NCBI RefSeq assembly: GCF_012027325.1
Contig: NZ_SNUG01000001.1
Span: 62,001 to 126,000, forward strand
DNA from: Thermococcus sp. M39
Lineage (GTDB): Archaea > Methanobacteriota_B > Thermococci > Thermococcales > Thermococcaceae
Length of the DNA stretch: 64,000 bases
Direction of reading: 5' to 3'
Part shown: one piece after another, positions 26,822 through 51,323 of the stretch
Layout: every line of letters starts with the position of its first letter
Numbering within the stretch: the stretch's first letter is position 1
The notes under the pieces: generated by a model
Seen by the model: only the letters and a program-made list of their open reading frames with translations
Databases searched by the model: none
What the model was told of the DNA's origin: nothing
Made by a program: the position numbers and the translations under genes

Positions 26822-26878
26822 GCCCTCCCCACTCACACCTCCGGGACAAGTGACCGGAGGTCGGTCGGGGAGGGTACA
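26822..26878 (+). ncRNA. H/ACA guide RNA (pseudouridylation)
   Basis: The GC-rich element folds as one hairpin. The lower stem is G-CCCTCCCC (26822-26830) with GGGGAGGG-T (26867-26875), 9 pairs including one G-U, immediately followed by ACA (26876-26878). The internal pocket is ACTCACA (26831-26837) and TCGGTC (26861-26866). The upper stem is CCTCCGG (26838-26844) with CCGGAGG (26854-26860). The apical loop GACAAGTGA has the GA...TGA signature of a kink-loop (L7Ae site). The pocket can pair with GACCG-U-C-GUGAG, which as I recall is part of the conserved archaeal 23S rRNA segment reading UUUAGACCGUCGUGAGAC. That would make the U the target. Confidence 0.78.
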
Positions 26879-27955: not shown

Positions 27956-28007
27956 ACTATCACATCATTTACATAGTTACGACTTTAGAGTATTAAACAA
28001 TTTCGGC

Positions 28008-28064
28008 TCATCAGGGCTAGACCTCATCATCTTCTTCAGCTTTTCCGGAGTCCAATCATCGCCC
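28008..28064 (-). ncRNA. Candidate C/D box guide RNA overlapping a stop codon
   Basis: Read on the minus strand: box C-like ATGATTG (28059-28053), D' CTGA (28039-28036), C' ATGATGA (28030-28024, perfect) and D CTGA (28014-28011). The guides are GACTCCGGAAAAG before D' and GGTCTAGCC before D. The D'-C' spacer is 5 bases, within the usual range. The TGA in the box C region doubles as the stop codon of the upstream phosphatase gene, an arrangement common for thermococcal C/D RNAs. Box C deviates at its last two positions from RTGATGA. GGGC before box C can pair with GCC after box D. Confidence 0.55.
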
Positions 28065-28595
28065 AAAATAGAGCTCCTCATTTATCCTCGGTATCATTGC
28101 CATCAAAACTGCCAGTTTGTTCAGCTCTTTTCTTAGTAGCTTTCCTCTTGTTAAAAAACCTATCGCCCCTATGGTCTTCTTTAACTCTCTATCACCGCTG
28201 AGTTCGCTCATTGGGAGTGCAACTTCAACTCCTTCTCTCAAAACTCGCTCAACAGCATAGGGAGGATATTCAAAGCCCGGTCCATGACCTAGGGTTATCT
28301 TCCCTTCTCTATCAACAATTGCACAGAACTGGATGTCCATATATCCTGTTATGCTGTAGGGAACTTTATAAAGACCAGCCTCTATTCCAACGCCTAAGTC
28401 TGCATTACCTTTCTTTAAAGCCTTCTTTGCTCTATTAATTGCTCCTTCAATTGTCTTTTCCAATCCTATTGGTTGGTCTCCAACTTCACTATCAACTTCA
28501 ACTGCTATAACTTCAACATCTCCATAAAACTCTCTCATAATTTCCTCAACAGCCTTGACCTTTGTTGGGTTTGTTGAACCAACTGCCACTCTCAT
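28056..28595 (-). CDS. Inosine/xanthosine triphosphatase (DUF84/YjjX family)
   Basis: About 179 residues from ATG 28595 (GGTGA 5 bases upstream; GTG 28604 lies inside that site). The start [16 protein letters not shown] matches the YjjX/DUF84 family. G-I-E-A-G-L and G-H-G-P-G-F-E-Y-P are also typical of it. The enzyme hydrolyses non-canonical nucleotides such as ITP and XTP. It sits 5 bases downstream of the DUF401 permease gene, probably in the same transcript, and its stop codon is shared with a C/D RNA candidate. Confidence 0.85.
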
Positions 28596-49427: not shown

Positions 49428-49713
49428 AGTGCTTCACCCCAACCTTTGATATACCAAAACACTACAGCAATGCTCAAATATTTGCAATTACACTATACAC
49501 TTGTACTCATTAATAAAGCTTTCTCTTTTTTGATTTCGGCAAAAGACGATTTACTTGAGCTTAAAAGTAAGTAAACAGCATTTTTGTCATTTTTTCAATA
49601 CCATGAAGAAAAGTAAAAGATTTTTGGTCTTTCCGGTAATATTTCCAATTTGATATCCGTTCAACTACAACGTGCATAAAAACTTTTAACATTTACCCCA
49701 TAATTTCATATCG

Positions 49714-49769
49714 CCCGATGATTGGAACGAGAGTGAGCTGAGCAGTGATGACCGACTTCTCTCTGAGGG
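49714..49769 (+). ncRNA. Candidate C/D box guide RNA upstream of gdhA
   Basis: Box C-like ATGATTG (49718-49724), D' CTGA (49738-49741), C' GTGATGA (49745-49751, perfect) and D CTGA (49763-49766). CCC before box C and GGG after box D can form a terminal stem. The D'-C' spacer is 3 bases. Guides are GAACGAGAGTGAG before D' and CCGACTTCTCT before D. An AT-rich CTTTTAAC about 25-30 bases upstream could be its promoter, and a T-rich tract follows. Box C is imperfect, in the same way as in the C/D candidate near 28.03 kb. Confidence 0.6.
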
Positions 49770-49772
49770 TAT

Positions 49773-49812
49773 CTATTTTGTTATTCTATTTTGTTATTAT
49801 TTTTGTTGTTTG
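49773..49812 (+). terminator. T-rich terminator after the C/D RNA candidate
   Basis: Tandem CTATTTTGTTATT copies followed by ATTTTTGTTGTTT give an almost pure T-rich non-template strand without a stem. This is the form of intrinsic termination signal seen in Thermococcales. Confidence 0.45.
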
Positions 49813-50002: not shown

Positions 50003-50010
50003 TTTATATA
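50003..50010 (+). promoter_or_regulatory. TATA box of gdhA
   Basis: TTTATATA preceded by a purine-rich GCGAAAGG BRE-like element, a near-consensus thermococcal promoter. Transcription should start near 50031-50035, leaving a leader of about 30 bases that includes the GGAGGG ribosome site. This fits the very high expression usual for gdhA. Confidence 0.75.
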
Positions 50011-50060
50011 GGTAATTGTCCAAAAATGTATCGCCAATCACCTAACTTGGAGGGATGAAC

Positions 50061-51323
50061 ATGGTTGAGCAAGACCCATTTGAAATTGCTGTTAAGCAGC
50101 TTGAAAGAGCTGCCCAATATATGGACATAAGTGAAGAGGCTTTGGAGTTTTTAAAGAGGCCTCAAAGAATTCTTGAGGTAACAATTCCCGTTGAGATGGA
50201 CGATGGTTCTGTAAAAGTCTTCACTGGTTTTAGAGTTCAATACAACTGGGCTCGTGGTCCAACAAAGGGTGGAATTAGATGGCACCCCGAGGAGACTTTG
50301 AGCACTGTTAAGGCTCTCGCTGCTTGGATGACCTGGAAGACTGCTGTTATGGACCTCCCATACGGTGGAGGTAAGGGTGGTATAATCTGTAATCCAAAAG
50401 AGCTCTCTGATAGAGAGAAGGAAAGACTTGCAAGAGGTTATATAAGAGCTATTTATGACATTATCAGCCCATACACAGACATTCCAGCTCCAGACGTTTA
50501 CACTAACCCACAAATCATGGCTTGGATGATGGACGAGTATGAGATGATTTCAAGAAGAAAGACCCCAGCCTTTGGTATCATTACAGGTAAGCCACCAAGC
50601 GTTGGTGGTATCATAGCAAGAATGGATGCAACAGCTAGAGGTGCTTCATTCACAGTCAGAGAGGCAGCCAAGGCTCTTGGATGGGACACCCTTAAGGGCA
50701 AGACCATCGCAATCCAAGGTTACGGTAACGCTGGTTACTACATGGCCAAGATCATGAGCGAAGAGTACGGAATGAAGGTTGTTGCCGTTAGCGACAGCAG
50801 AGGCGGTATCTACAACCCAGATGGACTCAACGCTGACGAAGTCCTTGAGTGGAAGAAGAAGACTGGTAGCGTTAAGGACTTCCCAGGAGCAACAAACATC
50901 ACAAACGAAGAGCTCTTAGAGCTTGAAGTTGACGTCCTTGCACCAGCTGCTATTGAGGAGGTCATCACCAAGAAGAACGCTGACAACATCAAGGCTAAGA
51001 TTATCGCTGAGCTTGCCAACGGTCCAACTACACCAGAGGCAGATGAGATACTCTTCGAGAAGGGCATCCTCGTAATCCCAGACTTCCTCTGTAACGCTGG
51101 TGGTGTTACAGTCAGCTACTTCGAGTGGGTGCAGAACATAACTGGCGACTACTGGACAGTTGAAGAGACAAGGGCAAAGCTCGACAAGAAGATGACCAAG
51201 GCATTCTGGGATGTCTACAACACCCACAAGGAGAAGAACATCAACATGAGAGACGCAGCTTACGTCGTTGCCGTCAGCAGAGTCTACCAGGCAATGCTCG
51301 ACAGAGGATGGGTCAAGAAGTGA
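50061..51323 (+). CDS. gdhA: Glutamate dehydrogenase
   Basis: 420 residues from ATG 50061 (6 bases after GGAGGG); ATG 50055 is too close to the site. The sequence is of the thermococcal hexameric enzyme type: M-V-E-Q-D-P-F-E start, P-Y-G-G-G-K-G-G with the catalytic lysine, [10 protein letters not shown] and the nucleotide motif G-Y-G-N-A-G-Y-Y. It interconverts glutamate with 2-oxoglutarate and ammonia using NAD(P). The last third uses a noticeably more C-rich codon set, consistent with high expression. Confidence 0.96.

What the first reader, a model, noticed from the sequence alone, without database searches (positions are those of the whole stretch)
49714..49812. Free-standing C/D guide RNA in the gdhA intergenic region
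C, D', C' and D boxes, a terminal CCC/GGG stem, an upstream AT box and a T-rich tail form a complete small transcription unit. It shares the unusual box C GATGATTGGA with the candidate at 28.03 kb, which hints at a common RNA subtype.
Basis: partly seen in the sequence, partly recalled or inferred. Interest (0 to 1): 0.5.

Follow-up and report, generated by a model that had tools for sequence, protein, structure and literature searches.

The report
Archaeal guide RNA aimed at decoding site
This is a small guide RNA of a family already in the databases (sR58) from a heat-loving archaeon; its two guide stretches fit the two facing strands of the ribosome's decoding centre, which suggests, but does not prove, that it helps fold or methylate that spot.

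Summary
Window 49714-49769 (+) is a box C/D guide RNA of the known Rfam family sR58 (78.7 bits, E 9.9e-17), found in 91 of 94 genomes of the window's family. Its terminal stem covaries. It lies upstream of a gdhA-like gene in 87 of 91 loci. The T. kodakarensis counterpart is a published expressed, circularised RNA.

New, as far as my searches go, is the target. The conserved cores of the two guides are exact complements, in this genome, of the two facing strands of 16S helix 44 at the decoding centre; each target stretch occurs once in 16S+23S. The N+5 rule points to E. coli C1409 and A1492. The published P. abyssi 30S tables list neither as modified, so methylation is only a prediction; a folding role is as likely.

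Box C is unusual: the stem register makes it AUGAUUG (inference). A known kind of RNA; its apparent aim at the decoding site is the interesting part.

The parts
49684..49689 (+). TATA-like box TTTTAA, at -30 to -25 from the RNA start
   Evidence: Sequence. TATA-like hexamer at -38..-21 in 66 of 91 copies, control 6 of 91. PMC4247193 (passages) gives a median TATA-to-start distance of 23 bp in T. kodakarensis.
49714..49769 (+). sR58 box C/D guide RNA (mature ends may lie a few bases further out)
   Evidence: Rfam RF01308 at 49714-49768; 91 of 94 family genomes; alignment of 91 copies
49714..49716 (+). 5' strand of the terminal stem (CCC)
   Evidence: Covariation with 49767-49769; pairs 1-3 Watson-Crick in 91 of 91
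49717..49719 (+). Kink-turn bulge GAU (inferred from the stem register)
   Evidence: With CCC as the bulge instead, the first stem pair forms in only 7 of 91
49718..49724 (+). Box C, divergent: AUGAUUG against consensus RUGAUGA (consensus recalled); register inferred
   Evidence: Sequence; register
49725..49737 (+). D' guide GAACGAGAGTGAG; invariant core GAGTGA at 49731-49736 pairs with 16S UCACUC
   Evidence: Positions 2-7 invariant in 91 of 91, complementary to 16S 1364-1369, the only UCACUC in 16S+23S
49738..49741 (+). Box D' (CTGA)
   Evidence: Sequence; in 91 of 91
49745..49751 (+). Box C' (GTGATGA)
   Evidence: Sequence; TGATGA or TGACGA in 91 of 91
49752..49762 (+). D guide CCGACTTCTCT; core CGACTTCTC at 49753-49761 pairs with 16S GAGAAGUCG
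   Evidence: 8 of 9 core positions invariant in 91 of 91, position 3 T in 84 and C in 7; complement at 16S 1444-1452, its only place in 16S+23S
49763..49766 (+). Box D (CTGA)
   Evidence: Sequence; in 91 of 91
49767..49769 (+). 3' strand of the terminal stem (GGG)
   Evidence: Covariation
49770..49812 (+). T-rich tail, candidate poly-U terminator
   Evidence: Sequence only; not tested
50055..51323 (+). gdhA-like ORF (name taken from the finding; no family search run), downstream neighbour with its own TTTATATA at 50003-50010; not part of the RNA
   Evidence: ORF; box; similar gene on the same strand in 87 of 91 loci

Best explanation
sR58 is a double-guide box C/D sRNA. Shown by sequence: the boxes, the covarying stem, its conservation in the family, and the fit of both conserved guide cores to facing strands of 16S helix 44 at the decoding centre. 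Inferred: the RNA assembles with L7Ae, Nop5 and fibrillarin, binds nascent 16S rRNA at UCACUC (E. coli 1406-1411) and GAGAAGUCG (1489-1497), and holds the two strands of upper h44 apart but close together until release lets the helix form. During this it may 2'-O-methylate A1492 (D guide, 9-10 pairs in 84 of 91 genomes) and, less surely, C1409 (D' guide, only 6 pairs in 82 of 91). Confidence is for the h44 target; methylation against folding help is left open among the rivals.
For: Family membership. D' positions 2-7 are invariant in 91 of 91 while positions 1 and 8 vary; their complement UCACUC is unique in 16S+23S. D positions 2-10 are invariant except position 3, while positions 1 and 11 vary; their complement GAGAAGUCG is unique in 16S+23S. 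So invariance ends where complementarity ends. The target base is Watson-Crick paired in 91 of 91 for both guides. The two sites face each other in a fold of h44. In four genus-g3 genomes the D' duplex grows to 8 (1 genome) or 9 (3 genomes) pairs at the same 16S site. Both sites are unchanged in 47 of 47 16S genes read. Shuffled D cores match 16S+23S in 3.5% of trials; shuffled D' cores match the facing 28 nt in 1.7%. Best runs around the 30 of 44 tRNAs examined: 5 (D') and 7 (D). Fibrillarin and Nop domain genes: (L7Ae not searched). Expression and circularisation in T. kodakarensis: table in PMC9014305.
Against: The P. abyssi 30S tables list no modification at either site; the map was at 3.2 A and only three 2'-O-methyls (250, 373, 1376) are listed in the whole 16S. 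Six D' pairs are few for methylation (recalled). In 7 of 91 copies, all in genus g3, D position 3 is C, facing A1490, which is unchanged in the 8 of 9 g3 16S genes read; this leaves 7 pairs through the target. A methyl on the A1492 ribose should disturb decoding (recalled). 16S is invariant at the sites, so guide-target covariation could not support the pairing. The shuffle controls are modest one by one, shuffled D' cores match somewhere in 16S+23S in 39%, and I chose the core lengths after seeing the conservation.
Confidence: 0.75

Rival explanations
1. Ordinary methylation guide: sR58 installs Am1492 and Cm1409 in most ribosomes; any folding role is secondary. (A variant of the best explanation: same target.)
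For: Both guides keep the N+5 geometry with a Watson-Crick pair at the target base in 91 of 91. Dennis et al. 2015 (PMC4644070, passages) predict guided methylation close by in h44, at E. coli A1408 in two archaea and G1494 in one.
Against: Not listed in the P. abyssi modification tables. Short D' duplex. Expected clash with decoding (recalled).
Confidence: 0.35
2. Chaperone without methylation: the RNP holds both h44 strands during assembly and leaves no mark. (Also a variant with the same target.)
For: The two guides fit facing strands, the geometry for which Dennis et al. 2015 propose chaperones in N. equitans helices 28 and 30 (passages). No methyl listed in P. abyssi.
Against: The target base is always correctly paired for catalysis. 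No functional data.
Confidence: 0.35
3. The real target is another RNA (an mRNA, or a tRNA not examined), and the rRNA match is chance.
For: Shuffled D cores match 16S+23S in 3.5% and shuffled D' cores in 39% of trials. 14 of 44 tRNAs, and mRNAs other than gdhA, were not examined.
Against: Both cores fit one helix on facing strands and invariance ends where pairing ends. No better match at the 30 tRNAs or in gdhA.
Confidence: 0.15
4. A cis-acting leader element of gdhA rather than a trans-acting guide.
For: Same strand upstream of gdhA in 87 of 91 loci.
Against: gdhA has its own TATA-like box, 234 bases beyond the RNA's end. In 4 of 91 loci no gdhA was found in the held flank. The T. kodakarensis RNA is about 62 nt and circular in part.
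Confidence: 0.05

Closest known systems
Rfam RF01308 sR58 (C/D box sRNA)
   Same: Full-length match, 1-55 of 55 positions, 78.7 bits against a cut-off of 55
   Different: Nothing essential: it is a member. The cmscan output gives no target; the h44 target is proposed here.
Rfam RF01121 sR38 (window 28006-28066, minus)
   Same: Shares the box C letters GATGATTGGA in this genome
   Different: Different guides; family consensus UUUGA after GAUGA; its box D seems to read AUGA (last point inferred)
T. kodakarensis ncRNA02 / TKOcandSno66 (PMC9014305, Table 1 seen as passages)
   Same: 1257020-1257081 with predicted start 1257078; my sR58 hit in G024 is 1257024-1257078, minus
   Different: That paper uses the label sR58 for an RNA elsewhere in the genome, so the names do not agree.
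Chaperone-type double guides of N. equitans sR15/sR17 (PMC4644070, passages)
   Different: Those bind helices 28 and 30; here helix 44 at the decoding centre

Membership tests
Rfam sR58 | Covariance model score above the gathering cut-off | tested here: met
   78.7 bits against 55
Archaeal box C/D sRNA | Boxes C, D', C', D in order with guide-length spacers | tested here: met
   Pattern met by 91 of 91; D guide 11 nt; C-D' spacer 16-17 nt counted from GATGA, 13-14 nt if box C is AUGAUUG (inferred)
Archaeal box C/D sRNA | Canonical box C (RUGAUGA, recalled) | tested here: inconclusive
   CCGATGA or AUGAUUG depending on register; neither is canonical. Stem covariation favours the second; seven copies with C or A in place of the T after GATGA fit it less well
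Archaeal box C/D sRNA | Terminal stem closing the C/D motif | tested here: met
   Covarying CCC/GGG
Archaeal box C/D sRNA | Guide complementary to a stable RNA with N+5 geometry | tested here: met
   Both guides to 16S h44; D' by 6 pairs only in this genome
Archaeal box C/D sRNA | 2'-O-methylation of the target | not testable with these tools
   The P. abyssi tables do not list the sites
Archaeal box C/D sRNA | Partner proteins encoded in the same genome | tested here: met
   Fibrillarin and Nop domain protein; L7Ae not searched
Archaeal box C/D sRNA | Expressed as a small RNA | not testable with these tools
   Not in this species; the T. kodakarensis counterpart has 8,320 aligned and 139 circular small-RNA reads, and 6,342 and 0 in the ligase knockout (paper table)

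The most novel reading that the evidence does not exclude
Ribosomes of this archaeal family carry a guided 2'-O-methyl on the decoding nucleotide A1492 (and perhaps C1409), placed by one sRNA whose two guides together open both strands of upper helix 44; either the mature decoding site tolerates a methyl on a ribose used in codon reading, or only some ribosomes are methylated there.
Probability: 0.3. Interest if true: 0.75.

Novelty: new member of a known kind. Interest (0 to 1): 0.42.

Why it matters
The RNA belongs to a known family, but its conserved guides point at one of the most constrained parts of the small subunit. If A1492 is methylated, the view that its free 2'-hydroxyl is needed for decoding (recalled) would need a second look in these archaea. 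If it is not, sR58 is a conserved test case for C/D RNAs acting as rRNA folding helpers. Either outcome can be read out in T. kodakarensis, where gene knockouts are made (PMC9014305).

Tried and rejected
Common subtype with 28.03 kb: rejected; that RNA is sR38, with different guides. GATGATTGG followed by CTGA after 5-30 nt occurs 4 times in the genome; two of these are sR58 and sR38.

tRNA targets: stretches around 30 of 44 tRNA genes scanned; best runs 5 (D') and 7 (D). The other 14 were not read. gdhA mRNA: best runs 7 (D) and 6 (D'), unremarkable.

sR58 outside the family: 0 of 21 other genomes of the class by guide pattern (90 of 115 in all, the backward control 0), and 0 of 24 over the cut-off by model, the three family genomes that missed included.

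Guide-target covariation in genus g3: the 16S does not change where the D guide changes, so that test gave no support.

Naming relatives by GDH: 80 loci with record titles came back; used only to see that the nearest are labelled Thermococcus.

Literature: 10 paper searches ran (one search found nothing). In their listings and in the passages and sections I opened I found no statement of an sR58 target or of methylation at A1492 in archaea. Gaspin et al. 2000, a main Pyrococcus list, was not looked up or read. P. furiosus RiboMeth-seq data are said to be deposited (PMC7758197, passages) but cannot be reached here.

Full report
What it is. Window 49714-49769 on the + strand reads CCC-GAT-GATTGGAACGAGAGTGAG-CTGA-GCA-GTGATGA-CCGACTTCTCT-CTGA-GGG. 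Rfam scores 49714-49768 as sR58, RF01308, 78.7 bits, E 9.9e-17, over all 55 model positions. A search of the 94 genomes of the window's family gives one match over the cut-off in each of 91. The three misses are G080, G083 and G086, all genus g5, 95, 82 and 61% complete; a second search without the strict filter found nothing over the cut-off in these or in the 21 other genomes of the class.

Structure. I read all 91 copies (30 loci, 60, and the window; alignment). The terminal stem CCC/GGG is Watson-Crick at pairs 1-3 in 91 of 91. Pair 3 occurs as CG 75, TA 11, AT 3 and GC 2, and pair 2 as CG 90 and TA 1. A fourth pair forms in 83 of 91, G-U counted. With this stem the three-base kink-turn bulge should be GAU and box C should be AUGAUUG; the kink-turn rules used here are recalled. 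The alternative, with CCC as the bulge, pairs at its first position in only 7 of 91. One copy (L091) has AATGA in place of GATGA, which fits this reading. Seven copies have C (L057, L077, L079, L089, L090, L091) or A (L092) in place of the T after GATGA, which fits it less well.

Transcription. TTTTAA lies at 49684-49689, 30 to 25 bases before the RNA. A TATA-like hexamer lies at -38..-21 in 66 of 91 copies, against 6 of 91 at -98..-81. The T. kodakarensis counterpart is in PMC9014305 (table seen as passages): ncRNA02, alias TKOcandSno66, 1257020-1257081, predicted start 1257078, 8,320 aligned small-RNA reads and 139 circular ones, and 6,342 and 0 in the RNA ligase knockout. My hit in G024 is 1257024-1257078 on the minus strand. 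G024's contig has 2,088,737 bases, which I recall as the KOD1 length. That paper's own 'sR58' lies elsewhere.

Surroundings. A gdhA-like gene follows on the same strand in 87 of 91 loci; the exceptions are L076, L082, L084 and L088. The transporter gene upstream (NSS-type by eye) is found in 67 of 91; some loci are cut short by contig ends. An open frame of 60 or more codons ends inside the RNA in 15 of 91 loci: in all 9 of genus g3 it is a frame of 425 or more codons whose TGA lies in box C; the other 6 are frames of 69-176 codons and may be chance. In 7 of 91 loci ARAGORN finds a tRNA-Thr (TGT) ending 9 bases (5 loci) or 39 bases (2 loci) before the RNA. So the RNA keeps its place while its mode of transcription seems to change.

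Target. Positions are counted from box D' or D. D' positions 2-7 (AGUGAG read outward) are invariant in 91 of 91; positions 1 and 8 vary. Their complement UCACUC occurs once in this genome's 16S+23S, at 16S 1364. D positions 2-10 are invariant except position 3 (T 84, C 7); positions 1 and 11 vary. Their complement GAGAAGUCG occurs once, at 16S 1444. D' positions 12 and 14 are also 91 and 87 of 91 alike without pairing to this site; they lie next to box C. The N+5 bases are C1367 and A1447. I number these as E. coli C1409 and A1492 from the sequence context; this agrees with P. abyssi A1461 = E. coli A1492 in PMC13324472 (passages) and C1381 = C1407, U1467 = U1498 in PMC7005279 (section 7 part 1 read), which make C1409 P. 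abyssi C1383. A fold of h44 puts the two sites opposite each other. The sites are unchanged in 47 of 47 16S genes read (30, 17), out of 61 genomes with a hit; 33 of 94 gave no hit there.

Pair counts. D' forms 6 contiguous pairs from position 2 in 82 genomes, 7 in 5, 8 in 1 and 9 in 3. D forms 9 in 83, 10 in 1 and 7 in 7. Seven of the nine g3 genomes have the weaker D guide and all nine have the longer D' guide, as if the two trade strength; this is one lineage and may be one event. Controls: shuffled D cores match 16S+23S in 3.5% of 20,000 trials; shuffled D' cores match the facing 28 nt in 1.7% and any place in 16S+23S in 39%. The cores were chosen after seeing the conservation.

Against methylation. 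The P. abyssi 30S study lists 44 16S modifications (Tables 2-3); positions 1383 and 1461 are not among them. Mass spectrometry there confirmed kinds of nucleosides, not places of 2'-O-methyls. Only three 2'-O-methyls are listed in the whole 16S (250, 373, 1376) at 3.2 A, so others may have been missed. Dennis et al. 2015 predict guided sites close by, at E. coli A1408 in S. acidocaldarius and N. equitans and G1494 in M. maripaludis, call predictions in h44 relatively sparse, and propose chaperone roles for guides that bind both strands of a helix (passages). No Thermococcales are among the seven species as listed in PMC7994747 (section 4 part 1).

Judgement. The element is a member of a known family. 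The target is well supported by sequence. Whether the result is methylation, folding help or both is open. My searches found no earlier statement of this target, but a main Pyrococcus list (Gaspin et al. 2000) was not seen.

Noticed in passing
window 26822-26878 (+): H/ACA guide RNA Pab91 (RF02795), 75.9 bits.
   Followed up: no
window 28006-28066 (-): C/D RNA sR38 (RF01121), 59.2 bits. Its box D appears to be AUGA, which could pair with the U at position 6 of the same unusual box C (inference).
   Followed up: partly
L003, L005, L008, L010, L014, L021, L022, L025, L063, near base 1506 of the locus turned to the RNA's strand: In genus g3 the box C TGA doubles as the stop codon of a long frame (antiporter-like by eye) that ends in R-stop.
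   Followed up: partly
L040, L044, L046, L056, L059, L066, L072: tRNA-Thr (TGT) 9 or 39 bases upstream of sR58, perhaps a shared transcript.
   Followed up: no
G024:C1:1257024-1257078 (L001): Database sR58 and the sR58 of PMC9014305 are different RNAs; the database one matches that paper's ncRNA02.
   Followed up: partly
window 49725-49762: The two guides of sR58 are partly complementary to each other, as the two strands of h44 are; a plain fold pairs them.
   Followed up: no
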